A stretch of 64,000 nucleotides of DNA from Proteus terrae subsp. cibarius. Lineage in GTDB: Bacteria; Pseudomonadota; Gammaproteobacteria; Enterobacterales; Enterobacteriaceae. Where the stretch lies: the NCBI RefSeq assembly GCF_011045835.1, contig NZ_CP047349.1:3224001-3288000 (forward strand). Reading direction: 5' to 3'. The translations under genes were made by a program, and so were the position numbers. Shown here piece by piece: positions 18,095 through 63,222 of the stretch. The notes under the pieces were generated by a model. The model saw only the letters and a program-made list of their open reading frames with translations. It ran no database searches and was not told the origin of the DNA. The stretch's first letter is position 1, and every line of letters begins with the position of its first letter.

Positions 18095-18097
18095 AGT

Positions 18098-43103: not shown

Positions 43104-44549
43104 TCAATTGTCTCTCATATACTTTTGCAAAGTTTTTTGATCCACCTTCAATGCTTCTGCGGCTTTAACCCATGTACCGAATTGCTTTTTGGCAGCTGTT
43201 GCAAATTCCTTATGAAACGCTTTCGTTAACTCATCCTTAGTTGTCTTGGATAAATCACCAAATGCAAACCTTGTGTCAGGACTATCCTCCTGGATAACAG
43301 GCTCGCCCAACGCAGCTAATGAGCTAGAGATTGCCGACTCTGAAGTTTGAGAGCTCAAAAACGCACAAGACATGTATGCCAGCTTTTTTAGGTCACGTAA
43401 GTTACCTGGTAAATATGCCGAGTTAAAAAACTGGATTAATTCATTTGACACCGGAGCTTCCGCAGGCAGATTGGGGTTAACATTAACTTCCTGCCAGATT
43501 CTTTGCCAATCCGACAGAATATCTTCTCTGCATGCACGAAGTGGAGGTATTGTTATTGTGAGCATGGATACACGATCAAAGAAATCAGCATCGAGTATCG
43601 TTGCCAATTGCTCAAGTGATTTATTACTCGCACAAACTAGCTCGAAGTCAGATGCTTCCTCAGTGTCACTTCCAACAGGGCGAAAACTGTGATAGTTATC
43701 TTGAAGCACTCGAACCAGCTTTCGCTGAACCGAAGTTGGTAAATCTTGAATCTCATCCAAAAACAAAACTTTTCCATTTGCTTCTTTCAAAAGTCCATTG
43801 CGATCCTTTTCTGCCCCAGTGAAGGCACCTTTTACGTGGCCAAACAACATACTATCAACCACTTGAGAATCTAGTCCTCCACATGCAAGCGTAACAACCT
43901 GCTTTTGCTTTACCTTACCGACAACGGTTTCAATTAGCCTCGTTTTCCCTGTACCACGTTCACCCAGTACAAGTAACGGAGCTTTGGGAACACAAGAGAA
44001 CTGCTTTAACGTTTGTAATGCATCCTGCCTTGCTTTTGATTTAGGGTCTAAATCGTAAAGGGCGTAACCGCCCTCTGAACTTGAAATAGCAGAGATCTCT
44101 GCCAAATACGTATTTACACTGAAATCAACTTTGGCAATGCTGGTTCTTTTGGTATCGGGGTTATATTGTGATGACCAGAGGATTGTTTCGCGTGGAAAAT
44201 GCCCCCGAGCATGAAGAATCAACCAAACCGCATGCATCGCCGGAGTTCCCGGCGATACATTGATATGAAGATTCTGTTCAAGCTTTAGCTCTGGAATAAT
44301 CTCAGACTCTATTGCGTGATAAATTTCGTTGTGATCAGCTGGGTTCTCGATAGCTACAGTTCGAAAGGTAATCTGTATATCGCCAAATTCATGCTCTTTG
44401 TACAGACTGTTATCCCCAGCTGACTGAGTAAGAACAATTACTTTGCCAACATAAACTTTACGATTCTTAAGCCGCTTTAACGCTTCGTCTAATACCTCAA
44501 CCCCAGCTCTTTTTGAGTGCCAACAAAGCAGTGTGTTTTTGTTATCCAA
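43104..44549 (-). CDS. RtcR-like sigma-54 activator with N-terminal CARF-like domain
   Basis: A 481-residue bacterial enhancer-binding protein. Residues 1-150 look like a CARF domain, including the ligand-loop motif INVSPGTPAMHAVWL (97-110). The AAA+ domain has Walker A GERGTGKT (196-203), the sigma-54-contacting loop GAFTGA (241-246), Walker B LFLDEIQDL and an R-finger region. A C-terminal Fis-like HTH lies at about 455-478 (FGTWVKAAEALKVDQKTLQKYM). In RtcR the CARF domain senses RNA ends or a related ligand; in CRISPR proteins CARF binds cyclic oligoadenylate. It is the last gene of the cargo operon, 2 bp after the PLD-like gene. Confidence 0.85.
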   Translation of the reverse strand: MDNKNTLLCWHSKRAGVEVLDEALKRLKNRKVYVGKVIVLTQSAGDNSLYKEHEFGDIQITFRTVAIENPADHNEIYHAIESEIIPELKLEQNLHINVSPGTPAMHAVWLILHARGHFPRETILWSSQYNPDTKRTSIAKVDFSVNTYLAEISAISSSEGGYALYDLDPKSKARQDALQTLKQFSCVPKAPLLVLGERGTGKTRLIETVVGKVKQKQVVTLACGGLDSQVVDSMLFGHVKGAFTGAEKDRNGLLKEANGKVLFLDEIQDLPTSVQRKLVRVLQDNYHSFRPVGSDTEEASDFELVCASNKSLEQLATILDADFFDRVSMLTITIPPLRACREDILSDWQRIWQEVNVNPNLPAEAPVSNELIQFFNSAYLPGNLRDLKKLAYMSCAFLSSQTSESAISSSLAALGEPVIQEDSPDTRFAFGDLSKTTKDELTKAFHKEFATAAKKQFGTWVKAAEALKVDQKTLQKYMRDN

Positions 44550-44551
44550 AG

Positions 44552-45646
44552 CTACGCCTCCAATACAATTCGGGCGTTTGGCAATTCACTTTGCTTCAGC
44601 CTTTTTGCCATGGCAAGTTCGTATTCTTGACGAACTGTAATTGCTAACTGTTTTTTTGTCAGTCGAACAACCTTTGGCTCATAACTCTCTCTAGGCGATC
44701 CTGAATCCTGCTTCTTAGAAGTTTCATCCTTAGCCGTTAAAGGTTTGAAATACTCTGGACTGGCGTTAGTGATAACTGGCGGCTCTATACGCCATTTATA
44801 CTCAATCTTGTGCGATGTTTTTTCCCGCCAGTTTGCATTGGGTATTTTTGGGTGCTTATCCATATCAGACAAACAATCTGCTTTTATAGGTGATAACTCA
44901 ACAATGTCTACTTCGCTGACTGAGTACCTCTTGAATGTATTATTTTCCCAAGCTTCAAAACCACCAGAAATCATCCCTAGACTCATGTCGATGCTCAATT
45001 CATTGTGGCTATTAGTTAAAAACATATCCAAGCAGTTCATCAGCTCTTTTACCTGAGTACCGGTGAGTTTTACGCCTAACTCAAAGCCTTGATCCATACC
45101 ATGCGCTTGAAAATTGGCCGACATCACCATGCCATGCATTCCATCTACTACAATAGCTTTGGCATGTAGCCATTTAAAACACATCACCGATGCACCAGCC
45201 TGTTTCATAGCCATCAACGCTGGCATGGCTGCGGGTCTTTGGCGAGATAGAATGGTGACTTTTAGCCCCGACTTCGCACGTTCACATATTGCTTTTACAA
45301 GCTGATGGTCCTCTTGCCATCCAAAACTCGATATGATGAGTTCATTTTCCGCTTGATTGATCAACGCTAATGCGTGTTCCCTAATTCGAGCGTCTTCACT
45401 CGATGTGACCAGTATTTCAGTTAATTCCCTTGGATATCTGACATTGCCCGGCGACTTATATGCTGAGAATTCACCACGGCTTGTCATATGGTGCTGCGCA
45501 CTCTCGAAGATTGCCCAACGGAACACATTCACGATCTCAGCTATTTGATGGCGTGAAAGCGCGACCCCCAGCTCTTCATTTCGTAAAAGTGCTTCTTCTG
45601 TAAGGTTTGCCGTTAAAAGCAACCCTTTAGCATTTACCAGTTTCAT
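44552..45646 (-). CDS. Phospholipase-D-like nuclease, second part (HKD motif 2)
   Basis: A 364-residue product containing a complete HKD half-site, HAKAIVVDGMHGMVMSANFQ near residue 165, preceded by a PLD-type strand (ELIISSFGWQED). Its first residues (KGLLLTANLTEEALLRNEELGV) look like the downstream half of another HKD motif, whose upstream half is in the gene at 45627-46088. The two frames overlap by 20 nt, so they are probably one gene of about 510 codons broken by a frameshift. The lysine-rich C-terminus has no known domain. Confidence 0.7.
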   Translation of the reverse strand: MKLVNAKGLLLTANLTEEALLRNEELGVALSRHQIAEIVNVFRWAIFESAQHHMTSRGEFSAYKSPGNVRYPRELTEILVTSSEDARIREHALALINQAENELIISSFGWQEDHQLVKAICERAKSGLKVTILSRQRPAAMPALMAMKQAGASVMCFKWLHAKAIVVDGMHGMVMSANFQAHGMDQGFELGVKLTGTQVKELMNCLDMFLTNSHNELSIDMSLGMISGGFEAWENNTFKRYSVSEVDIVELSPIKADCLSDMDKHPKIPNANWREKTSHKIEYKWRIEPPVITNASPEYFKPLTAKDETSKKQDSGSPRESYEPKVVRLTKKQLAITVRQEYELAMAKRLKQSELPNARIVLEA

Positions 45647-46088
45647 GTAATGCGTCTATAACAACGGCTTTTGCGTGGAAATGCGGCGCAGATGCAAAGT
45701 GAACATGTCCAGACAATTTGTTTAACATTTCCTTATGCTGCACAAGACACTTCTTACCAAAGTCATCGTCAGGCACATCGCCATCAAGACGAGTCTCACA
45801 TGCCAATAGTATGTACACACGAACTTTGCGCTTTGCAGCTTTTAGGACAGCAGATTCGACATTCTCATCAGCAAGTAAAAACGTACTAAGAATAACCGAG
45901 TGCTCAGCATTATCGATTAATTCGACAACTCTTGATTGCAGCTCATTGCAGAACAAAGAGCTATTTATAGGTTGCGGATCAGATACCTGTTTAGGTAAAA
46001 CAGGCAAAAGCACAGGGGGCAACTTGGTATTTGATTGATCAACAATCTTAGTTTCAGTCTTAGTAAACTTTTCAATTAAATTCATCAC
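45627..46088 (-). CDS. Phospholipase-D-like nuclease, first part (HKD motif 1, apparently frameshifted)
   Basis: A 153-residue product with a PLD-type strand (ILSTFLLADENVESAVLKAAKRKVRVYILLA) and the first part of an HKD motif, HFHAKAVVIDA, right at its C-terminus. The rest of the motif continues in another frame in the gene at 44552-45646. Typical PLD nucleases carry two HKD motifs in one chain or dimerise, so a single-base change near 45630-45645 is the simplest explanation. It is not shown whether the split is a mutation, a read error or translational frameshifting. Confidence 0.6.
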   Translation of the reverse strand: MMNLIEKFTKTETKIVDQSNTKLPPVLLPVLPKQVSDPQPINSSLFCNELQSRVVELIDNAEHSVILSTFLLADENVESAVLKAAKRKVRVYILLACETRLDGDVPDDDFGKKCLVQHKEMLNKLSGHVHFASAPHFHAKAVVIDALHETGKC

Positions 46089-46097
46089 TATTATTCC

Positions 46098-47207
46098 TTA
46101 TAGGTTCCAATCATGGGCTGCAATGACATGCCAGGTATGCTGATTTTGCTGGTCTTCTTCAGTCCAAAACTGATTTGCCAACTCAGCCCTATCAGGTAGT
46201 GTGAAATTCCAACTTTTAAAAGGTTCGAGTGCTTTTTCTCTCCAAACTTGGTACTTGCTATTAGTGGCATACATATTGATATTTTTCTCTAATCTCCATT
46301 CAGCCCACTTTTTAGCATCCAATTCAGTCAATGCTGATATAGAAATATTGTGTAACTTCATCGCATCAAACGAGCCCAACTTGTGAACAGATGGTCTTTT
46401 TACGTTTACCGAGCGCTTCATATTGATTCGCTCAGATTCAGTAGTATTTTCGAAAACCACTGACAAGATTTCAGTTTGCTCATCCCATTGTTCAAGCAAG
46501 CCCTCACTATGCAGAAGTACCTTCAAAACTTGCTGACGACTGATTGGTTCAACCCGACGTGAAAATATAAGATCCTTTCCGCGCTTCACATCGACATTGC
46601 CTTCAGTCACATTCCACTCGATGTAATACGGTTTTCCTTGCGGTGAGATGCGCTCACCTTTGAGTTCAATTTTGTCAACGCGTACTTCCGAACCTCCACC
46701 TATTGGTTCAACCTTCAGGCCACGAACGTCTTTGACTAGTTGAGGAACCTCAACTAGTCGCTTTGCTCTTTCATTTAGCTCATTTCTGTTTTTTCCAAGT
46801 CCGATCGACGCTGCACTAGGCTCTGTGTGCGCATCAATAGTAAGAAGTGGATGAGGCAATAAAGGCTCATGACAAACGCAAAGGCTCCAACACCCATCTT
46901 CTGGCACTAGGATTTGATCTTTCTCAAGAGCAATCAGTCCTGATTCAGTAAGCCTGTATTGGTCTCGATTAGACTCAGCAAGCCCATATAATCGACATAT
47001 GTTTAGTAACCTATCAGCAACGACACGACGTCCGATTTTGTCCCCAAATAAATGCTCGGAGCACTCAGCAGAACTCGCATTCGGATAATCTTGAAGGAAT
47101 TGCAGCACGCAGTTAATTTCTGGACGGCTATCTGCCAGCGCGATTTCACCCTGTATGAGCCAACTTTCAGTCTTAATTTCTCGTTTTAGTATGATGTCCT
47201 GGCTCAT
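46098..47207 (-). CDS. Winged-helix protein of the hotspot 2 cargo operon
   Basis: A 369-residue protein with no function I recognise. The N-terminal 110 residues look like a winged-helix unit (ASSAECSEHLFGDKIGRRVVADRLLNICRLYGLAE...YRLTESGLIAL). The remainder is a beta-rich part (KVEPIGGGSEVRVDKIELKGERISPQG), then a helical C-terminus with many tryptophans. It overlaps the helicase 3' end by 4 nt and the PLD gene follows after 9 bp, so the genes form one operon. It may be the specificity or adaptor subunit. Confidence 0.6.
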   Translation of the reverse strand: MSQDIILKREIKTESWLIQGEIALADSRPEINCVLQFLQDYPNASSAECSEHLFGDKIGRRVVADRLLNICRLYGLAESNRDQYRLTESGLIALEKDQILVPEDGCWSLCVCHEPLLPHPLLTIDAHTEPSAASIGLGKNRNELNERAKRLVEVPQLVKDVRGLKVEPIGGGSEVRVDKIELKGERISPQGKPYYIEWNVTEGNVDVKRGKDLIFSRRVEPISRQQVLKVLLHSEGLLEQWDEQTEILSVVFENTTESERINMKRSVNVKRPSVHKLGSFDAMKLHNISISALTELDAKKWAEWRLEKNINMYATNSKYQVWREKALEPFKSWNFTLPDRAELANQFWTEEDQQNQHTWHVIAAHDWNL

Positions 47208-47628
47208 AGTGCCTCCTGTGATTCAGTCTCGATTGTTGTAGACCAGTAAGAATTGCTGGCAAAAGTACCTAACACACCCGATGCCTTTTGCATTGCAGGG
47301 CGGTTTCCGTACACAATGAGCTGATGCTTGGCCCTCGTAATTGCCACATTCAAGCGATTTGGGCTTTCAAGAAAACTCGTGGGATGGTTATTTGCGAAAC
47401 TAAGCATGACAAAATCAGCCTCATGCCCCTGAAAACGGTCTACGGTACATATCTGAATATCAATATACGGTGAGGATTTTTCACCTCGATAGAAATGCCT
47501 TACTCCGTGATGATTTCCCGTCCACTTTCGTAAAGCTCGACGTATAGCTCGCTCTTGAGCCCGATAGAATGCCAAAACAGCAACTTCCCAAGGCTTTTGT
47601 TGGTTTTTCTCAACATTTGGGTTTGATT
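47204..47628 (-). pseudogene. 3' part of the interrupted Upf1-like helicase gene
   Basis: Encodes the last roughly 140 residues of an SF1 helicase, including motif V (CTVDRFQGHEADFVML) and motif VI (RLNVAITRAKHQLIVYGN). It joins in frame with the 5' part at 60859-63168 once the Tn7-like element and one TSD copy are removed: the join reads SWAKS-NPNVEK. The reconstructed protein would be 909 residues. The upstream end at 47624-47628 is the TSD TGATT. Confidence 0.9.
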
Positions 47629-47778
47629 TGTGGGCGGACAAAATAGTTGGGAACTGGGAGGGGTGGAAATGGGGTTTTTAAGGATTATTTAGGGGAGAGT
47701 GACAAAATAGATGGGAACTGGGTGTAGCGTCGCAAGCTAATGCGAAAATTAAAAATGACAAAATAGTTTGGAACTAGA
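47629..47778 (+). repeat. Tn7-like left end with three TnsB sites
   Basis: TnsB-type sites begin GACAAAATAG at 47637 and 47701, and at 47757 within AAATGACAAAATAG. They continue TTGGGAACT, ATGGGAACT and TTTGGAACT. The spacing and wording are those of classical Tn7L as I recall it. Confidence 0.9.
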
Positions 47779-48137
47779 TTTCACTTATCTGGTTAACTAA
47801 TCTAGCTAACCTGCCGCTCAGCTTAGTACGATCCTATATCCAACTGATCATAATCCTTTCATCAGTATCCCAAATTAAATCCCCCTCCTAGACTGCCTCA
47901 CCAACACTTTACAGTGATCCCGTATTTCTGGACAGGTGATTGATTTTTTTCGCTTGTACAGGTATTAAGCCACAGTTATCTTGATGTAGACATTATGCAT
48001 TGTAATAGCCCATTAACATGCGCTAAGAGCATAAATTAATATACAGTAACAAGCATTACGATGTGCTAATGTTTGGAAAGCAGCCTCTTCCAACTACAAT
48101 AATAAGTTAACTATCCTCCACCCACAAATAATTACAA
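47779..48137. other. Non-coding stretch inside the Tn7-like left arm
   Basis: About 360 bp with no supported ORF between the left end and the brxA remnant. It is AT-rich and probably contains the former promoter of the BREX operon. No clear hairpin or repeat seen. Confidence 0.4.
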
Positions 48138-48332
48138 ATGACCCCTTTCCGCTATAACTCCGATCTCACCAGCGGCTCGCTACAAACCCGAAAGTGTCGC
48201 ATTATTACTGGCTTGTTACTCCAAGAGCTTGATGAAGCTGCCTGGGATAAAGCCATGTATGAGGAAAATGTGATCCCCTCCGCCAATATCGGACACCTTA
48301 GAAACTGAGTAAACTTACTCCAGAGGTGATCC

Positions 48333-48626
48333 ATGAGCAAGAAACCAACCCCAAAAGAGAACAAGAAGTATACAGCTGAGTTCAAAAGTGAGGCTATTAA
48401 ACTGGCCGAACGATTGAGCGTAGCGGAAGCCGCCGAAAAACTGGGCATCTATGCCAGCCAAATTTACAGTTGGCGCAGCGCACTCAACAACAGCCGCACT
48501 GGTGTCGAAAGAGAATCGCTCCTCGCCGCTGAAAACGCACGCCTCAAGCGTCAGCTCGCCGAGCAAGCAGAGGAGCTCGAAATCCTAAAAAAGGCGGCCA
48601 CCTACTTCGCGAAGCATCAAAAATAA
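48333..48626 (+). CDS. IS3-family transposase OrfA
   Basis: A 97-residue OrfA with an HTH (IKLAERLSVAEAAEKLGIYASQIYSW) and a leucine-zipper-like coiled coil (RESLLAAENARLKRQLAEQAEEL). An A6G run at 48587-48593 in its 3' half is a candidate slippery site for the -1 frameshift that makes the OrfAB transposase. Confidence 0.9.
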   Translation: MSKKPTPKENKKYTAEFKSEAIKLAERLSVAEAAEKLGIYASQIYSWRSALNNSRTGVERESLLAAENARLKRQLAEQAEELEILKKAATYFAKHQK

Positions 48627-48640
48627 AACGCTACGAATTT

Positions 48641-49492
48641 ATGCTGACAAATAGCGAGCTCTATTCAATAGCGATGATGGCGCGCGTTCTGTTAGTTTCG
48701 CGAAGTGGGTATTACAGCTGGCTTGATAATCGTGAAATGGTTAGTTGGCGCATGCAGCAAAGAGAATCGATTGATGCGTTGGTAAAGGCTGCATTTGAAG
48801 CTGGTAAAGGCCGGTATGGTGCCGAACGAATTTTTTATGATTTGGCGGAGCAAGATAATCCGCTCGATATAAAGACGATTCGAAAAAGCCTGAAAAGACA
48901 GGGATTAATTGCAAAGGCTGCCAGGTTATTCAAGGTGACTACTGACAGCAATCATTCACTACCTATTGCGCCAAACCTGTTGGCGAGAGATTTTTCTGCG
49001 CATCAACCTAATGAAAAATGGGTAACGGATATTACGTATATTCAAACGACAGAAGGTTGGTTGTATCTCGCCGTGATGATTGATTTATATTCGCGTAAAA
49101 TTGTTGGTTGGTCGATGAGTAAACATATTGATGCGCAATTGGTTTGTGATGCGTTGACCATGGCATTGTGGCGACGCAAATTCCCCAAAGGCGTTATTGT
49201 TCACAGCGACCGAGGCAGCCAATATGCATCGCACGCGTTTAGGGGGTTATTGGAAAAATATTCGCTCACACAGAGTATGAGTCGCAAGGGCGATTGCTGG
49301 GATAATGCGTGTGCGGAAAGCTTTTTCCACTCTCTTAAGGTTGAGCTGATTCACGGCGAGCCGTTACAGGATGGAAAGCAAACGCGCGAATTTGTTTTTG
49401 AATATATCGAAGTAGATTACAATCGGTACCGCCGCCACAGCGCAATTGGCTTTATTAGTCCTGAACGCTTTGAGGCAAGAAATGTATGTTAG
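48641..49492 (+). CDS. IS3-family transposase OrfB
   Basis: A 283-residue rve-domain DDE transposase. The acidic residues lie in WVTDITYI, VIVHSDRGSQYAS and NACAESFFHSLK (D, D-35-E spacing pattern). It is normally made as a fusion with OrfA by frameshifting. It looks intact. Confidence 0.92.
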   Translation: MLTNSELYSIAMMARVLLVSRSGYYSWLDNREMVSWRMQQRESIDALVKAAFEAGKGRYGAERIFYDLAEQDNPLDIKTIRKSLKRQGLIAKAARLFKVTTDSNHSLPIAPNLLARDFSAHQPNEKWVTDITYIQTTEGWLYLAVMIDLYSRKIVGWSMSKHIDAQLVCDALTMALWRRKFPKGVIVHSDRGSQYASHAFRGLLEKYSLTQSMSRKGDCWDNACAESFFHSLKVELIHGEPLQDGKQTREFVFEYIEVDYNRYRRHSAIGFISPERFEARNVC

Positions 49493-49819
49493 TTAACTGT
49501 CCGATGTTGGCGGCGGGGATCAATGTGCTTCAGAAACGCACGCAATCTACGGTAAGACGTATTTCTTCAGCGCTTAGAAAACGCCTAGAACACCTAAGCT
49601 CTAACTTTTGGGCTTTTGCGTTTTTATGTTAGGCATTGTCTGGCAGCTGGAGGAAGTGTAATGACCATGAATGGTCACTGTGATTAACAGTATCTTGCTT
49701 AAACTTATCTGAACAATAGTAGAACTGGCTCATATTTATCCCCTCTATGATTGTTTATCTTTTTCACCATAAAAAGTATCAGGGGCTACTCAGGGCTACA
49801 TAAAGATATTTATCTACTT

Positions 49820-50797
49820 TTACTGATTGATAAGTAGCATCAGTCCATCCGCAGGACTGGTGGTGCCGGCAAAATGCTGACCCAACACATGCGTATAGAT
49901 TTGCGTGGTCTTAACATCGGTATGCCCTAAGAGTTCTTGCACAGTGCGAATATCACGCCCCGCTTGTAATAGATGCGTAGCAAACGAGTGACGAAATGTA
50001 TGACAAGTGACACGCTTGCTAACGATGCCTGCTTTTTGTACGGCTGCCTTCAATGCCTTTCGCGCAACGGAGTCATGCAGATGATGGCGGCATAATTTGC
50101 CGTTATACGGGTGGTTGCAGAGCGTGCTGGAGGGAAAGACAAACATCCACGCCGCTTGTCGATAAGCAGAAGGGTATTTGCGATCTAAAGCAAAAGGCAG
50201 CGATGGCCCTACGCCTTGTAAGTTGTCGTCTTGCTGAATAAGCCGCGCTTGCTCAATGAGTTGTTTTATTGCTGGGATTAGGCGCGTGGGCAGTAGGCTG
50301 TTTCTGCTTTTCCCACCCTTACCGTCATGCACAGTGATGCAGCCATTATCAAAATCAAAATCTTTAACCCGCAAACGCAAGCATTCATTAATGCGCAAAC
50401 CTGCACCATACAGCAGCGCAAAAATAACTTGGTTGCGAGTATCCATAACCTGCAAAATGCGTTGCACTTCATTTGCAGAGATAACAGAGGGTAGCCGTCT
50501 AGGCTTGCTTGCAGGGATATAATCAATATCGCCCAACGGCTGTTGTAAAAACCTGTTGTACAAAAAAGCTAGGGCATTTAAAGCGATTTTCTGCGTGTTT
50601 ATGGCTACATGTCTGCTGTTTGCTAAGCTGGATAAAAACAGCCTGACCTCTTCACTGCCCATGGTCTGAGGATGACGTTTTTTGTGAAACAGAATAAAAC
50701 GCTTAATCCAGTGCAAGTAAGTTTTTTCAGTTTTCAGCGCATAACCTTTTTGCCGCATATCCGTGCGTATAGAATTTAAAAATGGACTGTTAGACAT
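49820..50797 (-). CDS. intI2: Class 2 integron integrase with Gln179 (full length)
   Basis: A 325-residue tyrosine recombinase starting MSNSPFLNSIRTD; the in-frame upstream codons to 50818 are not needed. The RHRY residues are intact: R in GAGLRINECL, HTFRHSFATHL, the second His in LLGHTDVKT and the final Tyr in QIYTHVLG. Codon 179 (50261-50263 on the plus strand, TTG) reads CAA for Gln. In the widespread Tn7 intI2 this codon is TAA. The integrase should therefore be complete and active, able to move cassettes at attI2. Convergent with nothing; attI2 lies upstream. Confidence 0.96.
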   Translation of the reverse strand: MSNSPFLNSIRTDMRQKGYALKTEKTYLHWIKRFILFHKKRHPQTMGSEEVRLFLSSLANSRHVAINTQKIALNALAFLYNRFLQQPLGDIDYIPASKPRRLPSVISANEVQRILQVMDTRNQVIFALLYGAGLRINECLRLRVKDFDFDNGCITVHDGKGGKSRNSLLPTRLIPAIKQLIEQARLIQQDDNLQGVGPSLPFALDRKYPSAYRQAAWMFVFPSSTLCNHPYNGKLCRHHLHDSVARKALKAAVQKAGIVSKRVTCHTFRHSFATHLLQAGRDIRTVQELLGHTDVKTTQIYTHVLGQHFAGTTSPADGLMLLINQ

Positions 50798-51039
50798 AAA
50801 ACGCTCCTTGTCTTGCAACTGTCTGCCTATACAGCCTATTCTAGCTGGGATTTAAAAAAGTGCCTGTTTTTTACGCCTAGAGATGCTTGTTTACCGGTAG
50901 AGTTTTAATTTAATGCTAAATAAATTAAAGTGTTATGAGTTCTTTGGGTGAGATAATGTGCATCATGCAAATAGGATAGACGGCATGCACGATTTGTAAT
51001 AACAGAGTGTCTTATATTTTTAAAGAAAGTCTATTTAAT

Positions 51040-51114
51040 ACAAGTGATTATATTAATTAACGGTAAGCATCAGCGGGTGACAAAACGAGCATGCTTACTA
51101 ATAAAATGTTAACC
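51040..51114 (+). other. attI2 integron recombination site
   Basis: The stretch upstream of the first cassette contains the attI2 wording as I recall it (TTAATTAACGGTAAGCATC, then GAGCATGCTTACTAATAAA) and ends in the GTTAACC core at 51108-51114. Recombination places the first cassette after the G of GTT. Confidence 0.85.
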
Positions 51115-51128
51115 TCTGAGGAAGAATT

Positions 51129-51602
51129 GTGAAACTATCACTAATGGTAGCTATATCGAAGAATGGAGTTATCGGGAATGGCCCTGATATTCCATGGAGT
51201 GCCAAAGGTGAACAGCTCCTGTTTAAAGCTATTACCTATAACCAATGGCTGTTGGTTGGACGCAAGACTTTTGAATCAATGGGAGCATTACCCAACCGAA
51301 AGTATGCGGTCGTAACACGTTCAAGTTTTACATCTGACAATGAGAACGTATTGATCTTTCCATCAATTAAAGATGCTTTAACCAACCTAAAGAAAATAAC
51401 GGATCATGTCATTGTTTCAGGTGGTGGGGAGATATACAAAAGCCTGATCGATCAAGTAGATACACTACATATATCTACAATAGACATCGAGCCGGAAGGT
51501 GATGTTTACTTTCCTGAAATCCCCAGCAATTTTAGGCCAGTTTTTACCCAAGACTTCGCCTCTAACATAAATTATAGTTACCAAATCTGGCAAAAGGGTT
51601 AA
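51129..51602 (+). CDS. dfrA1: Trimethoprim-resistant dihydrofolate reductase DfrA1
   Basis: A 157-residue DHFR starting [18 protein letters not shown] and ending YQIWQKG. It matches DfrA1 at every position I can recall. The family's substrate residues are present ([24 protein letters not shown]). It gives trimethoprim resistance. First cassette, 14 bp after the attI2 core, with GAGGAAG as ribosome-binding site. It is driven by the integron promoter in the attI2/intI2 region. Confidence 0.98.
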
Positions 51603-51691: not shown

Positions 51692-51712
51692 TCTTGTCGG
51701 AGAGCTAAGAAA

Positions 51713-52975: not shown

Positions 52976-52998
52976 TAACTAGGGTTTCAGTCATTCCT

Positions 52999-54615: not shown

Positions 54616-56141
54616 TCACTCTTCCCCATAAACCATTTCCAAGAATCTTTGTGCTTCCTCAGTTATCCGCTCTTTAGATAACGTTGCACTTCTTAATAAT
54701 CGCCAGCGCCTAAGCTCAACATCTTCCTGTTTAAGCTTAATAAAGGCTTGGCTAATCCGTCTAATTTGATAATCTTCCACACTCTCTGAGTAACGCTTTA
54801 AGCAAAGCGCTACCAAAGGCAGTTTCTGTAGATTTTTAGCAAGTGAAGTTCCATTCGGGATTTGCTTTAGCAACCAATTCGCTGTCGCCCTTGGATGGTC
54901 AAGGCTGCTATCTAGACGCTTTATGATTCTTAATATTTGTCGTACAGCAATTCGATCTCTTTGGTTCCAATCAACTCTAGGGGCGGGTGCCAGACGCTCT
55001 TGTTTATGCTGTTGATTCCAGTGAACTAACCAATCCCTGTCATGTCGGTAAAGCCAAGCGTATAGCGCCCCACCCTCTAAAGACTGTCTTGCCTCGTTAA
55101 TCCCTTGGTATAGATGCACCAGCTGCTGCCATTTTTTACGTTTAATAGATAAATCTTCAGAGTTAGGTTGCACAGACTGGCTGACAGGTCTTGTCGCTAT
55201 AGAGTGCCCAGTAATAGCACTTGCCTGCTGTAGCACCTCTATAACCGTTAGTTTTGGCAATAAGGCTTGCCACACAATACTATGCTGTAAATAACTAAAG
55301 GCTTTTCTATGCTTACGGAATATACTTTTCAGCCAACACGTGTCCTTGTTCTCTGCCAACGTTAAATCCAGTTTCTCTAATGCCTCATCACTAAAAGTCT
55401 GCCTCACTCTCTCCGCCACCAAGTCATGACGAATGTGCTTGCTTTTGATTAGCCCTAGATCCTGCGCTAAGCGCTGATAAAACAGCGTCCACTGTCAAGG
55501 CTTGGGGAAAGCTCTTGCGCTCGTGGAGCGTCTAACAGAGGGGCTATATAAGCAGCTAGTGCTGTTAATTGAGATAGGGAGTCTTTGGGGTAGTCTGAAA
55601 GCAGCTCAGTATGACTCACAGCCCAAAATTGATGTCGGTGATCATCTACTGCTCTATCAAAGAAGACTAAAGCACCGTGTTTTGGACAATATGGCAAAGC
55701 GGGCAAATACCAATCTCGTTGCCAAAAGGCTTCCCCATACCTATTTAGCTGAAGAGCAACGCAATCAGGGCAGTATCTAAAGCGGTTATCACTCTTAACT
55801 CTAGAGGCAGCGACTCCTAGCATTAAATGCACTGCACCTTGCGCTTGGTACTCCATTAACCAAATCGCTTCGTCTCGGCGCTCTTTACCCACAAATGGGG
55901 CATATAAAGGGAATAAGGTATGCTCATAAATAAGCTGCTGAACAGCGTAATGTCCTGTTTGATGTAGATGTCTTGCTATGACACCTAAATGCGAGGGCAG
56001 ATCTAAGGTAGCGATCACCTTGCGGTTGCCATACACCTCATCCAACAGCTGCTTAGGGCTAACAATCCCTTGATAAACGCCTGCCCGTGCAATAGTGCTA
56101 TAAATCAGCTCATTCGAGTACGGGACAGGAAAGTTTCTCAT
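54616..56141 (-). pseudogene. tnsD: tnsD, frameshifted attTn7 target selector
   Basis: The span is 1526 nt, one short of the 1527 needed for the 508-residue Tn7 TnsD. The N-terminal frame (56141-55467) is Tn7-like through APRAQELSPSL, then shifts and ends 11 residues later. The C-terminal frame resumes as QWTLFYQRLAQ in the other frame. A single T is missing (plus strand) in CCACTGTCAAGG near 55495, where Tn7 has CACTGTTCAAGG. The zinc-site cysteines (CPDC...YCPKH) stay in the N-terminal part. TnsD binds glmS; this copy should be inactive. Confidence 0.92.
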
Positions 56142-56143
56142 CG

Positions 56144-57811
56144 TTAGCCTGCTTGTTTGAATAAGCTCGCCATATCCACTATTACCCCTTTCCCTTTTAA
56201 CCGTTCATGCATGGTTTTTTCAGGTTGGCGTTGTGAATAGATATAACGTAAGTCCGTATCAGGAAAACTATCCCAGTCGCTTGGTTTGACTACCTTTGTA
56301 GCCGAAACCTTTTTACTCTTGGAAGGCTTTTCTAGTTCTAACACTACCGTTTCGCCTTCCATCAACCACTGCAAAACAAGAGGCAGTAGCTTTTGTCTTG
56401 TCATCGTTGGATTCTGGCTAAACGCTTTTTTAATAGTGGGAATTAACAAGCTTGAATCATAATCCTCTCTTAGCATCAGATATAAGTGGCGCTGATCTTC
56501 GGTATCTAGCTCCTGAAGCGCTTTTTCTTCTGGTGTTTGTTCTTGTATCGCTGCGATGTCTAGCTGAAGTTGAATTAACCGTTTATCAATCTCAGGAACC
56601 ACTAAGTCAGAGTAACGGGCTATACGTTCTGGTATGCCCGAACGTAATGCCTCTAGCATGGGGTGCACAGGCTTTAACTCATCTTGATACACTTGCCGCA
56701 ATAAACTAGGGGTAATACGCTCATTGCCTAAAGCTAGTGCACGGAGCTGAGCGAGTACAAAAAGTTTTACTACAATATCCATCACTCCTTGGCTCAGCTC
56801 ATACCAGACATCCCGAATCTCCTCAGACAACAACTCATCTTTACGTTGTAACAGCTGTAATTGCCAAAGATTATCCGTAAAGGCAATCCACTCTTGATTG
56901 GGCTTTCCACGTTGTGTTTGTTGTATAGGATCCCAGAAAATAGCCCCAAACCCTGCACCTCTACGGGCAGACCGCAAGTCAGCCTCAAAAATCTCCCGTG
57001 CTTTAGGCGTACCAATCAGCATCACTGGTACGCCAATAATATTCACCATCGTTACAAAAAAATTCAGCATCTCTTGAGAGCCTCCCGAGCGAGAGCGGCT
57101 TAAATGCTGAATTTCATCAATAACCAACACCCCTAAAGCATGTGCATTGGCTATTTGTGACATCAAAGCCAACATGGTTTCTATACCATGACGTTTTAAT
57201 CCATAACGACGCTCATAGTTCGAGCCTAAGGCTCGATCCAACGCTCTGAAAAAATTCAAGCAGATCTCTTTTAGCGAACCATTATGCGAGCAGTCTATTT
57301 TCAAATACACCACTTGCTCTACATTAAGCTCGGGGTGATAAATCACTTGAGGGTAAGTAGCTAAGATACGATGTAGCGAGGTAGTTTTACCGCTACCAGA
57401 ACAACCAATTAACAATAAACTTTGTGCCGTGGACCGAGCCTCCTCAAAGCGAAATGCCTCCAACTCTCCCTTTTGAACACGCTCATAGCCATTTTGTAAG
57501 TGCTTTTGCAAATCACCTGTTTTTGGATTTCTGCCTACGTAGCCACCTCGAATCATGACCGAAATACGCTCACTCAGTAGCAAATGCGTACCTAATGGCT
57601 GAAAATAGTCATCTGGAATACGACAAATGGTATGAGCTCTGATAACACGGGGCTTTTGCAAGTCAGAGGAGGTAAGCTGTAAAGAGGATTTCAGTGATGC
57701 AGCACTATTCACTGACTCTTGCAGTGGTGGTAAGGCCTCGATAAAAGGATTGCCACGATAAGCCTCTACCCCCGTATCACGATAAACCGCTTGAATCTGG
57801 GTAGCACTCAT
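56144..57811 (-). CDS. tnsC: TnsC, AAA+ regulator of Tn7 transposition
   Basis: A 555-residue AAA+ ATPase with Walker [16 protein letters not shown] near residue 132 and Walker [14 protein letters not shown] near residue 228. It forms the filament/ring linking TnsD or TnsE to the TnsAB transposase. Length and sequence match Tn7. It overlaps the tnsB stop by 4 nt and lies 2 bp from tnsD. Confidence 0.96.
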
Positions 57812-59916
57812 GACTCATCCTTTTCTGGTGGATCCTGAAATAACTCAGGCACGTATGTGGGTAGGCTGTAATCCTCTTGATCATCCGCCTCCACTGCGAT
57901 GAAAGGAATCACTTTCGCCTCCTCTCCAGACGAACTAGGCTTCAAAAGCTCTGCACGCTTTTTACGCTCTGAAGTCACGGCTTCTTTTTTATTGGTTTTA
58001 ATCTGCTTAATGCGTGTTGATTTGGACTCAGTGGTACTAGGCGTTAGCTTGTTGGCTTTCTGAATAGTTTGCTGAATAAACGCCTCAAGCTCCCTGCGTT
58101 TAGTTAACTCATCCTGCTTCGCATTAGCTTTATTGTGTTTTTCTTGTGCTTGTATATCCCAAACCTCCCAAAATGAGAGACCTTTAAACTGCCGACTACG
58201 TTCCGTTAGATTACAGCGCCAAAATACACGGCTGCCAACTTGCGGAAACAAATAAATCGTATCAACCAGCACTGGGTCATAAGCCGCTTCTAAATGTTGA
58301 GGTCTAGCTATATCAGTGCTCCGCTGCAACCAACCCTCACGTAGAATCTCTGACCCCGAGTAATACAAACCCCACAAATTAACGCCAAATGAAGAAATAG
58401 AGACCTTTCGGCGAGGTAGTAACGCTACTCGCAACTGCTCTTGCTCCACAGCCCTTAAACTACCTGTACGATGCTGCATCCCCCATTGCCATAACTGGAC
58501 AGGAATAGACGGTAAATCTGTAGGAAAATCAGCATCTCGATCGTATTTATCCATCACCAGATGGTTATTTCTGAATAAGATCGTACGCAAAATAATTTGT
58601 GTGAACTCAAATACCGACAGAGATGCATCCAACCTATAGTCTGTTTCACCATGGCTTTTGATCCGACTGCCCTCTACAATGCCTGGAGCAAAGGATTTAA
58701 ACTCAGCTTGAAGGGTTCTAAACGTACTTTCCACTATGCCTTTAGCATCGCCACGTCTAGGTGGAGCACTTTCCACTCGCACATTAAAACTAGAAACTAA
58801 GGCTTCGACCTGATGACTCATTAATTCGCCACGGTCCGCTAGCAACACATCTGGCAAACCTACACACGGCCAGTCTGAGCTACTAATCTCAATATCATGC
58901 TGGGCACAAATCGCCGTTTTGTCAGAGCAAGCATTTACAAAAGCCTGCATCGCCACCACATAAGACGGATTTTCAAAGCCGATATAAAAGCCCGTGATCA
59001 TCCGACTAAACACATCAATCACAATGTAAAGCGTTGGTCTTCCTATGATTTTTTGGCGATCATGATGATCCACTAAATAAATATCAGCAATCGTGGCATC
59101 AATCTCATAACGACTCCCTGGGCCTAACGCCTGAGAAGTGGCTGTACTACTTAAGGGTCGTACGTCTTTTTTATATACCCCTGCTTTAACTCTGGACTTT
59201 AACCGCTGAGCTTTAGGGTATTCTCGATCATAAAAATAACGAAACTGACGTAGCGTTGGATAATCCTCTTGGGGAATGCGAGGAAAATACTGAGCAAACA
59301 AGTCCACAAATCGTCTATAGGCAACGGTGGTCTTTATACCTTTTTGATTTAATAGATGCTTTTCTATGGTCAACCTAAAAAGCCGTTCAATCTCGGGCGT
59401 TACCTTGGTTCCTTCACCCTTACCATATTCTCTGGCTCGGCCAATTTTTGCTGTTCCTGTCGCTGAGCGTCTTCCCCCTGGTGCACCGCTGTTTTTGTAG
59501 TCGGGAATTAATGCATTAGGCGTTTGACCACGCTGCCAATACCTTCTTAATAATCGATAAACTGTTTTTTTCGAAACCTGCTTAGACTCCACAACAGCAT
59601 CAATTAAACGTGCTCTTTCAGAAGCATCAAAAATACCCTTATGCTGCAAGAGTGGTAGCAATACCTTAATATTTTCTTCTCTACGAATAAAACGTACAGA
59701 CCCTATTTCTGGATCCTCTTGGTCTAGGTAATCAAAGGGATCCGTACTCCTCACTAACTGACCTGAGTCCAAGGCAGCCAAGAGACTCAACTCCAAAATC
59801 CTTTCTGGCAACGCCTTCGGATTTTCAATATCAATCCAGATCAACTCCCCCTGACTAATATCTAAAACCCGATAAAAGCGGCTTTCTACTTGAAGCACCT
59901 CATTAATTTGCCACAT
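57808..59916 (-). CDS. tnsB: TnsB, DDE transposase with a divergent N-terminal domain
   Basis: A 702-residue transposase from the ATG at 59916 ([12 protein letters not shown]). The DDE catalytic core has [24 protein letters not shown] and [15 protein letters not shown]. From about residue 128 on ([13 protein letters not shown]...) it is near-identical to Tn7 TnsB as I recall it. The first ~125 residues ([21 protein letters not shown]...) are clearly different. That region belongs to the end-binding domain. It overlaps tnsA by about 14 nt at its start. Confidence 0.93.
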
Positions 59917-60724
59917 AAAGCCCCCTTTGCGCTGCTCCATCGTGCTCTATATCCAGCTCAGCACAGGTACTCAATCTAAACGGCTTATAAATATTAAATT
60001 TAATAAAGCCATTAGCGACTAATGCTCTAACATCACTTAACGTTTTACCTAGCTCCAAATCATAAGCAATATCAACCTGCTTACAGACATTGATAATGTT
60101 TTCATCTCCTTTTTCCTGCAGAATATGAGCTAATGTTGGCAGTTGTGCTAAAAGCTCCGCAGAAGCCCCTTCTGCTTTCACCGAATAAAGCCATTCAATA
60201 TTTTCTTTTACTACGGGATTTATTTCTTTATCAGTAAAAATGAACCAAGGAATTTGTTTTTGCTGCCAATAACGACGCTCTAGTTCTAATTTTTCTAGGG
60301 TGCGCTCGTCTTGTAAGGCTGCTGCAGGTTTGACTTGAATAGCAAACTGCTCAAAAGGACCGTTTTTGCAGTCCACCAAAAAATCAGTAGACATAACCTG
60401 ATCTACGCCGCGAATAGCAGGATGCTTAATGCCACTATCTATTGCAATCTGCTTGGTGTCACTAGGTAATAGGGGGAACTGCTCGCGTATATCTAGCACG
60501 CTGCTCTCCCATTCAAGGCTAAGAAAAACAGCAAGTTCTAAGTCAGAGAGCAAATGATGAACTCGTCCCGTTTTATGAGAATAAATACGGTGGGAACGAC
60601 CTAATGAAGGGACTTCTTGTACTGTTAGCCATGGAATGTAGTCCTTACCATGCCCTTGGCCACGCCCCTCTTTAATACGACGGGCAATTTGTACTTCTGA
60701 GAATGAAGATTTTGCTTTAGCCAT
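59903..60724 (-). CDS. tnsA: TnsA, endonuclease subunit of Tn7 transposase
   Basis: A 273-residue restriction-enzyme-like endonuclease that cuts the 5' ends of Tn7. The catalytic residues E63, D114 and K132 lie in ...SDLELAVF, VMSTDFLVDC and FAIQVKPA. It is near-identical to Tn7 TnsA up to about residue 248, then the C-terminus (RLSTCAELDIEHDGAAQRGL) differs from the classical sequence I recall. It is the first tns gene next to the right end, with a hairpin (CCAGTATGC... / CAGCATAACTGG) in its leader. Confidence 0.95.
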   Translation of the reverse strand: MAKAKSSFSEVQIARRIKEGRGQGHGKDYIPWLTVQEVPSLGRSHRIYSHKTGRVHHLLSDLELAVFLSLEWESSVLDIREQFPLLPSDTKQIAIDSGIKHPAIRGVDQVMSTDFLVDCKNGPFEQFAIQVKPAAALQDERTLEKLELERRYWQQKQIPWFIFTDKEINPVVKENIEWLYSVKAEGASAELLAQLPTLAHILQEKGDENIINVCKQVDIAYDLELGKTLSDVRALVANGFIKFNIYKPFRLSTCAELDIEHDGAAQRGLYVAN

Positions 60725-60770
60725 AATAAAAGTCCAGTATGCTTTTTCACAGCATAACTGGACCGATTTC

Positions 60771-60858
60771 AGTTTACAACTATTTTGTCTAGATGCAATC
60801 TATACTGTCACAGGCGCAAACTATTTTGTCTAGGCGCAATCTATTTTGTTACTCTACA
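60771..60858 (-). repeat. Tn7-like right end with four TnsB-type sites, divergent from Tn7R
   Basis: Four overlapping sites read on the minus strand: AACAAAATAGATTGCGCCT (60833-60852 region), GACAAAATAGTTTGCGCCT (60812-60831), GACAGTATAGATTGCATCT (60791-60809) and GACAAAATAGTTGTAAACT (60771-60789). The terminal bases are TGTAGAGTAACA rather than the TGTGGGCGGACA seen at the left end. The outer three sites differ from classical Tn7R in their inner halves. The innermost is Tn7-like. Confidence 0.8.
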
Positions 60859-63168
60859 TGATTTTGCCCAAGAATCAAAGCGACTTAATTCTTTTAATAT
60901 TTCTTCTAATTCAGCGGTGATTTCACCTTCTTTGCCTTTTCGACCTTTAACATCGTGCCATATACAACGATGTGAGCCGCTTCGGAATCCCCAGTCCCGC
61001 TTTTCAGCTTGGCCATCAGGACTTTGCAGTGCTTTTTCATGGTATATATGTACTCGGGAAAACTCGGCAATGTCTGGATGCATTCTGTGCTGGTAACTAA
61101 GCCGTATTTGTCGTTGTTCCAAAACACTGGCTGGAAGTCCATCAGACAGAGCGGTGCCTTGTTTCTGATACTCTGTTCGTTCAAATCCAACTTGTAGTGA
61201 TTCAAGGATAGAAGGCAGTGCGATCCTACGTACCCTGTCTATTGCAGTGAACGTATCTTTTTCTGAGTCAAATGGTAGTAGCGCTTTGATATCTTCCTCT
61301 AACTTATTAACAGTTTTAGAACTTCCGTTAGATTCTGTATTTAGGCGCTGTTCGTACATACGAGCCAGTCGCCACGCTAACTGGGATTCCCAGCTATCGG
61401 ACTCGGTCTTGATTTTTGTACGAGTTAATCTCGAATGCGCTGCAAGTCGCATTTCTAACTTTTCCGGTAACGCAGGCAGCCCCCTTATGGTCGTCAAATC
61501 CAGGGGTAGGTGATTAGCATTCTGAGCGATGAACGCTGACGAACCAAGGACTACTGATGCGTAAGGGAGATCTGTCTTCGGACCTTTAGATGATGCAACC
61601 AATACATTTTTGGACTTTGCTTGCTGATGATAAAATTCAATTGTCTTTTCATCGTCAGTGCAAACCAAGGATACTTCTCGTTTCTGAATATTGATTTGTC
61701 GAGCAGAGAAAATATCTGCGCATGCTTCTCGCTGATAACTATCCTGTAAACATGGCTGCAAATTTACTTCGGTAGCTTCATCATCAACATAAGGTGAAAG
61801 CTGTTTTGGGTCTCCCACCATGATCCAACGCTTGGCAAGTACCGCTGGCACCAAAAACTCTTGAAAAGTTGTTTTTGATGCTTCATCAATAATCATCACA
61901 TCGAAGATTGGCGATGTTGATTGTTTATTTTTGATATCAGGATGCTGAAGCAAACCAATAGTTGTCCCGCAAACTAAATTCGCCGCTTCAAGAACAAGAC
62001 GCTCAACAATATGTTTACCTTCACCGACCTTACTTTTAAGTAACTTCTGACTAACTGAAATGTGCGGTTGTTGCTGAAGATGTTTTAGCAATCTTGTGCG
62101 TTCAGTTTTAACAAACTCTTCCAATTGCCATGGCTTTGCCTTTTGAGAAACGCTTGATTTATCTCCAATCCGTACAGGTAACACCATGTCGCGATAAATA
62201 TTTTCTTCAGACATCATTCGTTCAAGAACATTGTCAACAGCAACGTGTGTTGATGCACAAAGTAAGATCCGCTTACCTCGCTTTATTAATTGAAGAATCA
62301 GTTCGCAAATGGCTGTAGTTTTGCCAGATCCAGGGGGGCCTTCAAGGAAGGCAAAGTCTGGTGTATTGAGTGCAATATTTACAAAATCACGCTGCTGAGA
62401 TGTTCCCTCTCTTGCTCCATCGGTAAGAACGTAGTAGTCATCGTTAAATAAGTGCTCATCATAAGGAACATTCGGCCACTTAGCATGATCCTTACCTTCA
62501 AACAGCCTCAATAGCGGAAGATGGTGAATAGAAGGGGTGTCTTGTAAGCTTTGTAATGCATTAATCTGACACTTTAACTGGTATGTGTTTGGACGAATAA
62601 CCAAATAGTCGTGGTCAGGTAAACGATCCAATAACAAGCTGTCATTCTCTACATTTCTGTCCAGGACTGAAATTGCGTTGGATTTATTGAATCCAACATT
62701 GCTTTGTGATTTACCCGTCAAATGCCAACCATAACCGTCTGGACACTCATACGACGACAGCCCATTGCCTAATTCACTCGCAATTTCGTCCGCGTGCTCC
62801 TCAGTTGCATAAGCCATTTTAGGTTTACCGTGACTTCTACAATTTGGGCATTCTCTAGCGGCACTACCCACGGCTTTCCATCTAGCGGGGCTTGCTTCGT
62901 ATACCGTGTCGGTACTTTCATCTAAAAAGAGCTTTAAGTTCTTTTCGAAATCACCGCAGTTATCGGCAGGCTCAACTAATTGTATCCATACTCCACTTTG
63001 AGCATCGTCCAGCTTTTCCCAAGCTATCGCTTTAACAGCCTTCGTACTTTCTAGGTATTTTCGAGTGGTGTCTAAATACTTATAAAAGTCACCAAGACCA
63101 CTCACTGCTTTACTAAGCAGGATGTCTGGCCTGTGAATTCCTAAGTTTGCGTATCTTAATAACGCCAT
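60859..63168 (-). pseudogene. 5' part of the interrupted Upf1-like SF1 helicase gene
   Basis: Encodes about 770 residues of an SF1 Upf1/AAA_11-type helicase. Walker A is FLEGPPGSGKTT near residue 280, the DEAD-box-like motif II is VMIIDEASKT, motif III lies in WIMVGDPKQLSPYVDD, and a cysteine pair (CPNC near 106) precedes a GWHLTGKS block. Strong ribosome-binding site AAAGGACG before the ATG at 63168. The Tn7-like insertion cuts the gene after SWAKS, before motifs V and VI, so the product is non-functional. It is the first gene of the cargo operon, 48 bp downstream of the sigma-54 element. Confidence 0.9.
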
Positions 63169-63207
63169 GTTTCGTCCTTTGATCGAATAAGTTGTTCATC
63201 CTAAATA

Positions 63208-63222
63208 TCAAGCATCGTGCCA
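63208..63222 (-). promoter_or_regulatory. Sigma-54 promoter of the helicase operon
   Basis: On the minus strand: TGGCACG-ATGC-TTGA. The -24 box TGGCACG is perfect and the N4 spacing is right; the -12 box is TTGA where the consensus is TTGC, one mismatch. The helicase ATG is about 40 nt downstream. The last gene of the same operon encodes a sigma-54 activator, which supports the assignment. Small inverted repeats upstream (ACCC-ttt-GGGT near 63301, GTAC-cattt-GTAC near 63327) could bind the activator. Confidence 0.65.

What the first reader, a model, noticed from the sequence alone, without database searches (positions are those of the whole stretch)
43104..63222. CARF-like sigma-54 activator, PLD nuclease, winged-helix protein and Upf1-like helicase in one operon: candidate undescribed defence or stress system
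Four genes are packed head to tail with 4-nt overlap or gaps of 2-9 bp: helicase (63168 to 60859, resuming 47628 to 47204), winged-helix protein (47207-46098), double-HKD PLD-like nuclease (46088-44552) and an RtcR-like protein (44549-43104) with a CARF-type SPGTP motif and intact GAFTGA. Helicase plus PLD pairs are known in defence (DISARM and Mokosh carry such domains). A CARF-sensing sigma-54 activator in the same operon would make the system switch on in response to a nucleotide or RNA-end signal. It sits in an ICE hotspot known for defence cargo. I do not know a named system with this composition.
Basis: partly seen in the sequence, partly recalled or inferred. Interest (0 to 1): 0.85.

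Follow-up and report, generated by a model that had tools for sequence, protein, structure and literature searches.

The report
Likely CARF-switched helicase-nuclease defence operon
Four bacterial genes (a helicase, a winged-helix protein, a cutting enzyme and a sensor that appears to switch the set on) travel together as one unit across distant bacteria and look like an unnamed defence against invading DNA or RNA, although the copy in this genome is broken.

Summary
The operon is real. A scan with the winged-helix protein gave 27 loci; 24 carry helicase > winged-helix > tandem PLD > RtcR-like gene in that order on one strand; two contigs end early; one locus lacks PLD and RtcR. The regulator matches PADLOC RtcR_PspF1 (CARF-AAA-HTH) over its length.

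New here: (1) a sigma-54 -24/-12 element near the helicase start (22 of 30 copies score 12 or more; 3 of 233 control upstreams). (2) A tandem dyad upstream; in 12 of 16 copies examined the -24 element starts 97-102 bp from it, and half-sites vary with the regulator's HTH. (3) One alphaproteobacterial lineage lost GAFTGA and -24/-12 together. So the regulator most likely drives its own operon. (4) The winged-helix gene is mosaic between copies, like a specificity subunit. (5) Some neighbours are Wadjet, Zac and BrxL genes.

Corrections: in the window the PLD frame is broken and a Tn7-like element with a dfrA1-like gene splits the helicase, so this copy is probably dead. Defence is inferred. Nearest kinds: CoCoNuT CnuH/CnuE and Mokosh; membership not met.

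The parts
43104..44549 (-). RtcR-like activator: N-terminal CARF-type domain, sigma-54 AAA+ with GAFTGA, C-terminal HTH; last gene of the operon
44552..45646 (-). PLD gene, downstream piece (second HKD and C-terminal part); out of frame with 45627-46088
   Evidence: PLDc_2 1e-14; single ORF in most other copies
45627..46088 (-). PLD gene, upstream piece (first HKD)
   Evidence: PLDc_2 3.6e-8
46098..47207 (-). winged-helix protein, 369 aa, no Pfam/NCBIfam/PADLOC match; residues 25-98 MarR-like wHTH; mosaic between copies
47204..47641 (-). UPF1-like SF1 helicase, 3' piece (AAA_12; the first residues of this ORF belong to the insertion)
   Evidence: AAA_12 1.3e-21; residues 767-908 of the intact relative
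47629..60858 (.). insertion inside the helicase gene (ends approximate): Tn7-like element with TnsA, TnsC and TniQ, integron integrase, DfrA1-like gene at 51129-51602, IS3-family transposase
60841..63168 (-). UPF1-like SF1 helicase, 5' piece (AAA_11, part of AAA_12; the last residues belong to the insertion)
   Evidence: AAA_11 5.8e-37; residues 1-770 of the intact relative
63207..63222 (-). sigma-54-type -24/-12 element upstream of the operon (the -12 half departs from consensus: TTGA for TTGC)
   Evidence: score 12.7, 1 of 100 shuffles as high; same place in closely related copies
63288..63322 (-). putative activator-binding region: two GGT-N9-ACC dyads 20 bp apart; first base 100 bp from the first base of the -24 element
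   Evidence: coordinates; spacing; conserved among 8 aligned upstreams of close relatives; counterpart of the GGGYN6RCCC tandem of distant copies

Best explanation
It is a compact, inducible defence operon. The last gene is a CARF-type sigma-54 activator that keeps the operon low until its CARF domain meets a signal, most likely an RNA end such as a tRNA fragment with a 2',3'-cyclic phosphate made during infection. It then oligomerises on the tandem dyad upstream of the helicase and fires the -24/-12 promoter. Because its own gene is in the operon, the switch amplifies itself. The products are a UPF1-like SF1 helicase, a winged-helix adaptor whose middle differs between copies, and a tandem-HKD PLD nuclease; together they find and degrade invader nucleic acid, with the adaptor giving the target choice. 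Shown: linkage, order, selection, conservation and fixed spacing of promoter and dyad, domain identities, mosaic adaptor. Inferred: ligand, self-amplification, complex formation, target, and the defence role itself.
For: Four-gene synteny in 24 of 27 loci, plus plasmids of Vibrio rumoiensis, V. aerogenes and Pontibrevibacter. -24/-12 element near the helicase start in 22 of 30 copies at score 12 or more, against 3 of 233 other upstreams. Tandem dyad: 10 of 13 hand-picked sites recovered by a leave-one-lineage-out matrix with 0 of 229 background regions as high. The -24 element starts 97-102 bp from the dyad in 12 of 16 copies examined, window included, although its distance from the mechanical start codon runs from -93 to +65; among 283 other 21-base windows of the same regions, 0 reach score 11 and 1 reaches 8.5. 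Half-sites differ with the HTH helix: DEKTLR with GGGY/RCCC; SVKTLQRD with GGAC/GTCC; VDQKTLQKYM with GGT-N9-ACC. L036 and L042 lost GAFTGA and have no -24/-12, though L036's genome has RpoN. HKD motifs kept twice in nearly all copies (by the pattern used L036 lacks the second). Purifying selection. In the middle of the wHTH gene identity falls to 64-68% between copies that are about 86-99% alike elsewhere, and all four combinations of two allele markers exist. PADLOC on 110 neighbour proteins of 15 loci: 118 families at 1e-10 (25 shown), among them JetA/B/C, ZacB/C, BrxL, GajA/B and DndC; control of 91 proteins of the own genome: 3 families, all 'mad'. The V. aerogenes copy lies beside type III-B CRISPR genes. 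[quoted passage not shown]
Against: No phage or plasmid challenge exists. The -12 half is TTGA or TTGA-like, off consensus, in the window and its close relatives. L033 (87 bp) and L030 (120 bp) depart from the fixed spacing, and L038 (11.1) and L039 (8.8) have weaker promoter scores. The dyad sites were picked by eye; a generic double-dyad test did not separate them from background; L030, L037 and, marginally, L034 (3 of 229) are not recovered by the matrix, and close relatives of the window do not match it (window: 15 of 229 background as high). The GAFTGA/promoter loss is one lineage. The control for neighbours came from one other genome; 'mad3' matched two proteins in both sets. Of 20 neighbour proteins scanned one by one at 1e-20, 17 gave nothing. 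In E. coli the RtcR CARF domain also binds and needs RtcAB (PMC9650030, passages), so the signal need not be an RNA end alone.
Confidence: 0.62

Rival explanations
1. It targets competing mobile elements (incoming plasmids or ICEs) rather than phages; the ICE and plasmids carry it to exclude rivals.
For: The window's copy sits among conjugation genes of an ICE; 9 loci share that flank; others are on plasmids. Wadjet genes, an anti-plasmid system (recalled), are neighbours in L031.
Against: Copies in Pseudomonas and Aquabacterium genomes lie beside Zac and BrxL genes, which belong to systems known for anti-phage work (recalled).
Confidence: 0.2
2. It is an RNA-damage or stress-response operon like rtcBA, with the helicase and PLD clearing or processing damaged RNA, and no role against invaders.
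For: The regulator is RtcR-like; the helicase's best solved relatives are UPF1, SMUBP-2 and NAM7.
Against: Rare: 2 of 398 phylum and 2 of 369 class genomes at 1e-60, the same two, with only up to 4 candidates scored per genome; mobile location, defence neighbours, mosaic adaptor, and breakage in 4 of 15 close copies (window, L011, L018, L022).
Confidence: 0.12
3. It is simply a member of a named system (Mokosh, or a CoCoNuT without its GTPase).
For: The helicase 5' piece scores 192 bits to PADLOC MkoA; PLD in both; CoCoNuT relatives are described as helicase plus wHTH-nuclease, with RtcR homologs common (PMC11090510, first parts of sections 9 and 11).
Against: No kinase or NERD domain in the intact helicase; wHTH and PLD are separate genes; McrC (PF10117) found in 3 of 15 genomes or records, none adjacent.
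Confidence: 0.06

Closest known systems
CoCoNuT type II/III modules CnuH-CnuE (Bell et al. 2024, PMC11090510)
   Same: UPF1-like helicase next to a winged-helix/nuclease partner; type III-C has two PLD domains; RtcR homologs accompany types II and III-A
   Different: No McrC found beside the cassette; wHTH and PLD are separate proteins; the RtcR-like gene is last, where the paper describes it at the 5' end; the extra ~200 residues of this helicase lie between the two RecA domains (query 461-681 against UPF1 380-399), while the paper describes an insertion after Walker A
Mokosh (types I and II)
   Same: UPF1-like helicase with a PLD protein; MkoA model matches the helicase
   Different: No NERD or kinase domain detected; separate wHTH protein; sigma-54/CARF control
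RtcR of the rtcBA RNA-repair operon
   Same: CARF-AAA-HTH architecture; sigma-54 control of an operon
   Different: Below the RtcR equivalog cut-off (191.6 of 650 bits); goes with a helicase-nuclease operon and is itself part of it
DISARM (DrmC)
   Same: PLD protein with a helicase in a defence operon; DrmC is the best PLD model
   Different: No DrmA or DrmB match among the four genes; PLD pieces below the DrmC_I cut-off (68.7 and 33.4 of 133 bits)

Membership tests
RtcR_PspF1 CARF regulators (PADLOC model) | Full-length CARF-AAA-HTH match (the library gives no cut-off) | tested here: met
   702 bits, residues 3-480 on 2-467 of 468
CARF domain | Six-stranded Rossmann-like core with a 5-6 hairpin; motifs after strands 1 and 4 | tested here: inconclusive
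   Predicted order of elements fits and motifs CWHS and SPGTP follow strands 1 and 4, but pLDDT there is 62-87 by blocks and the rows of the fold search are AAA+ matches
RtcR equivalog (RNA repair) | NF038308 cut-off 650 bits | tested here: not met
   191.6 bits
Mokosh | UPF1-like helicase | tested here: met
   MkoA 192 bits; UPF1 best PDB match
Mokosh | NERD (type I; table in PMC10952713, one passage) or kinase domain (recalled) on the helicase protein, or helicase-PLD fusion (type II, recalled) | tested here: not met
   Pfam scan of the intact V. aerogenes helicase at E 0.01 shows none of these; PLD is a separate gene
CoCoNuT | CnuB/CnuC (McrB/McrC-like) in the operon | tested here: not met
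   PF10117 in 3 of 15 genomes or records, none beside the cassette; McrB not searched
CoCoNuT | CnuE: wHTH fused to the effector nuclease (types II, III-A, III-C) | tested here: not met
   wHTH and PLD are separate genes in the copies holding both
DISARM | DrmC cut-off, with DrmA/DrmB | tested here: not met
   68.7 and 33.4 of 133 bits; no DrmA/DrmB match among the four genes
sigma-54-dependent operon | -24/-12 element plus upstream activator sites | tested here: met
   for most lineages; absent in L036, L040, L042; weak in L038 and L039
anti-phage defence | Protection from phage | not testable with these tools
   needs plating assays

The most novel reading that the evidence does not exclude
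An undescribed, widespread immune system in which a CARF domain of the RNA-end-sensing (RtcR) type, not the cyclic-oligoadenylate type, turns on a helicase-nuclease machine through sigma-54. The system would carry its own sensor, enhancer and amplifier in one operon, and a recombining winged-helix subunit would set its specificity, as HsdS does for type I restriction. Infection would be read as broken RNA and answered by transcriptional arming rather than by direct nuclease activation.
Probability: 0.4. Interest if true: 0.82.

Novelty: new variant of a known kind. Interest (0 to 1): 0.62.

Why it matters
RtcR-like CARF sigma-54 activators outside rtcBA were predicted in 2014 to switch on genes against viruses (PMC4012209, passages), but in my searches I saw no paper giving promoter and enhancer sites for one. 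This cassette offers a small, strictly ordered unit with predicted sites at a fixed spacing and diverged intact copies, so the question of which signal such CARF domains read in infection becomes directly testable with a reporter.

Tried and rejected
Chance adjacency of the four genes: rejected by synteny over distant lineages. Generic test for two neighbouring palindromes: no separation from shuffles or background, so only the sequence-specific matrix and the spacing are used. Phage or virus origin: no wHTH match in 50,697 phage records, and the viral-contig scan with the RtcR-like protein gave no confirmed relative. E. coli genomes: no DNA match with 43104-47100. PDB profile search with the wHTH alignment: nothing significant (best E 0.015). 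Rest of the wHTH protein (99-369): no fold named; the listed VIA rows cover 25-98. A search from the RtcR side in class and phylum samples added only a genome whose contig length equals that of L033, so it is not an independent reverse test of linkage. Neighbours of the 54%-identical helicases labelled Vibrio parahaemolyticus and V. vulnificus could not be seen: a Vibrio genus sample of 216 gave three matches, L018's genome and two whose positions equal the known plasmid copies. The CARF superfamily review of 2020 (10.1093/nar/gkaa635), likely source of the RtcR_PspF1 model (recalled), is not held, so a note of this neighbourhood there is not excluded.

The sigma-54 matrix was typed from recalled consensus frequencies. 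Names recalled and given by no call: SXT/R391 (as label of this ICE), mosAT, HS2, TnsB; the calls give TraC, AbiEi/AbiEii, TrbI-like, TnsA, TnsC, TniQ.
Full report
What is there. On the minus strand, 63168 to 43104, lie a UPF1-like helicase (two pieces, 60841-63168 and 47204-47641), a 369-aa winged-helix protein (46098-47207), a PLD gene (44552-46088) and an RtcR-like activator (43104-44549). The helicase is split by a Tn7-like element with TnsA, TnsC, TniQ, an integron integrase and a DfrA1-like gene. The PLD gene, read by the first stage as whole, is two ORFs in different frames. Most other copies have a single ORF of about 500-520 aa with two HKD motifs; exceptions are mechanical ORFs extended at the N-terminus, a 382-aa ORF near the end of contig L027, and L036 with one motif found by the pattern. 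The copy in this genome is therefore unlikely to work. It sits in an integrative conjugative element: TraC and a DsbC-like protein on one side, AbiEi/AbiEii and conjugation genes on the other.

Is it a unit? One scan of 84,980 species' genomes with a winged-helix alignment gave 46 pattern hits, of which 27 encode a relative. In 24 of these 27 the order is helicase, winged-helix, PLD, RtcR on one strand (a few cut by contig ends or with a broken helicase); in 2 (L025, L027) the contig ends after PLD; in 1 (L040, a planctomycete MAG) only helicase and winged-helix are present, the latter longer (508 aa), with a 170-aa neighbour weakly like HEPN (E 0.0015, below cut-off). The loci span Gamma-, Beta- and Alphaproteobacteria, Myxococcota and MAG contigs labelled Trueperaceae and Deltaproteobacteria, with winged-helix identity down to 28% in four-gene loci; short MAG contigs may be misbinned. 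Three plasmids carry it whole, and one Klebsiella plasmid carries a remnant with an IS21 element in the winged-helix gene and no helicase found within the stretch read. dN/dS is 0.035-0.27 in 32 gene-by-pair comparisons among copies close to the window's. Of 15 such close copies (window, L009-L011, L014-L023, L041; 9 of the fetched ones share the ICE flank), four are visibly broken (window, L011, L018, L022). In the host genus 2 of 20 genomes have it, the own one included.

Control of the operon. A sigma-54 matrix typed from recalled frequencies gave a -24/-12 element near the helicase start at score 12 or more in 22 of 30 copies (12 of 17 outside the close group; L034 and L035 are near-duplicates), against 3 of 233 upstream regions of other ORFs in the same loci; upstream of the three inner genes 1 of 90 reached 12. 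In several distant copies the element is canonical (TGGCAC-N5-TTGCT/A or nearly so); in the close group the -12 half is TTGA. Upstream of it in many distant copies lies GGGYN6RCCC twice at a period of 20 bp. Thirteen such sites were picked by eye; with a matrix from the other lineages 10 of 13 came back with 0 of 229 background regions as high, L034 with 3, while L030 and L037 failed. The close group does not match that matrix (window 15 of 229 as high) but has a conserved pair GGT-N9-ACC, also 20 bp apart.

Fixed spacing. From the first base of the dyad to the first base of the -24 element is 97-102 bp in 12 of 16 copies examined (L025, L026, L027, L028, L029, L031, L032, L034, L037, L038, L039, window); 87 in L033, 120 in L030, and no element in L036 and L042. 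The distance to the mechanical start codon meanwhile runs from -93 to +65, so the spacing belongs to the pair of sites; in L032, L038 and L039 the mechanical ORF start lies too far upstream, the conserved MALLHY start or its like being further in. Of 283 other 21-base windows in the same regions none reached score 11 and one reached 8.5. L038 (11.1) and L039 (8.8), which looked like exceptions upstream of the mechanical start, have candidates at 99 and 97 bp.

Regulator and site vary together. DEKTLR in the HTH goes with GGGY/RCCC, SVKTLQRD with GGAC/GTCC in Pseudomonas, VDQKTLQKYM with GGT-N9-ACC in the close group. Two related alphaproteobacterial copies (L036, L042) lost GAFTGA, the sigma-54 contact motif (recalled), and have no -24/-12, yet keep one dyad; L036's genome has RpoN, as do 10 of 12 genomes or records tested, the exceptions being the L040 MAG and one plasmid record. 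I conclude that the RtcR-like protein most likely controls its own operon.

A variable subunit. In the pairs compared along the operon, 200-base windows are 86.5-100% identical except in the middle of the winged-helix gene, where L010/L021, L023/L021 and L023/L010 fall to 64.5-67.5% in different windows. dS there is 0.83 for L010/L021 against 0.21-0.28 in the other three genes. Two allele markers occur in all four combinations (window, P0001, P0002; P0005, P0007, P0008; P0006; P0011) among 22 database proteins and the window; the other 15 of 23 are 'other' at one or both markers. Exchange of parts fits a target-choosing or phage-evading surface (inference).

Neighbourhood. From 15 loci I gave PADLOC 110 of 151 neighbour ORFs listed (mostly short or edge ones left out by hand); 118 families matched at 1e-10, 25 shown, including JetA/B/C, ZacB/C, BrxL, GajA/GajB, DndC, WYL and a methyltransferase. 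As control, 91 of 104 ORFs from 7 arbitrary stretches of the own genome matched 3 families, all 'mad'; mad3 also matched two neighbour proteins, so it is uninformative. Placed: JetA in L031, Zac in L034, BrxL in L029; Gabija and Dnd genes were not placed. Of the 20 neighbours scanned one by one at 1e-20, 17 gave nothing and 3 matched (two Zac, one BrxL). The families overlap, so 118 is not a count of genes, and the control is one genome.

Known relatives. CoCoNuT helicases are described as typically followed by a winged-helix domain fused to a nuclease, two PLD domains in type III-C, with RtcR homologs near types II and III-A (PMC11090510, first parts of sections 9 and 11; passages). Here no McrC lies beside the cassette (3 of 15 genomes or records have one, none adjacent) and the parts are separate genes, so it is not filed as a CoCoNuT, though the working principle may be shared. 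Mokosh pairs a UPF1-like helicase with PLD; its NERD or kinase domain was not found. Other papers: PMC7790460 and PMC9650030 seen as passages, PMC12839542 as passages, PMC10952713 as one passage; the rest only in search listings.

Verdict. A real, selected, strictly ordered operon with strong signs of self-control through sigma-54 and a probable defence role; unnamed in the libraries scanned and in the search listings I saw; a new variant of helicase-nuclease defence. My odds: unit 0.99, self-control 0.9, defence or anti-mobile-element role 0.75, details of ligand and target about 0.4 (inference).

Noticed in passing
window 16667-19741: An McrC-like protein (PF10117) with a neighbouring 547-aa ORF that may be McrB, in the same window about 25 kb from the cassette; no PADLOC match at 1e-10.
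   Followed up: partly
window 10518-16426: Three minus-strand ORFs (1189, 462, 314 aa) without a PADLOC match at 1e-10, next to the McrC gene; possible further cargo.
   Followed up: no
window 47629-60858: Tn7-like transposon with TnsA, TnsC, TniQ, an integron integrase and a DfrA1-like gene inserted in the helicase gene.
   Followed up: partly
window 63749-64000 and L043:1750-3514: AbiEi/AbiEii toxin-antitoxin pair between the cassette and the conjugation genes.
   Followed up: partly
L040:6277-8333: Planctomycete MAG: helicase and winged-helix without PLD or RtcR, winged-helix protein extended to 508 aa, then a 170-aa protein weakly like HEPN; no RpoN match in that genome.
   Followed up: partly
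L011:12001-18669: Klebsiella pneumoniae plasmid carries regulator and PLD of the cassette, with the winged-helix gene split by an IS21 element, on a plasmid with CTX-M-15.
   Followed up: no
L060:6001-6852: Rhodobacter xanthinilyticus plasmid: helicase fragment of this kind followed by IS26, near tet(C).
   Followed up: no
L009:200-6021: Near the cassette on the Vibrio rumoiensis plasmid: Hsp70-family protein, AAA ATPase and hypothetical proteins in one run of genes.
   Followed up: no
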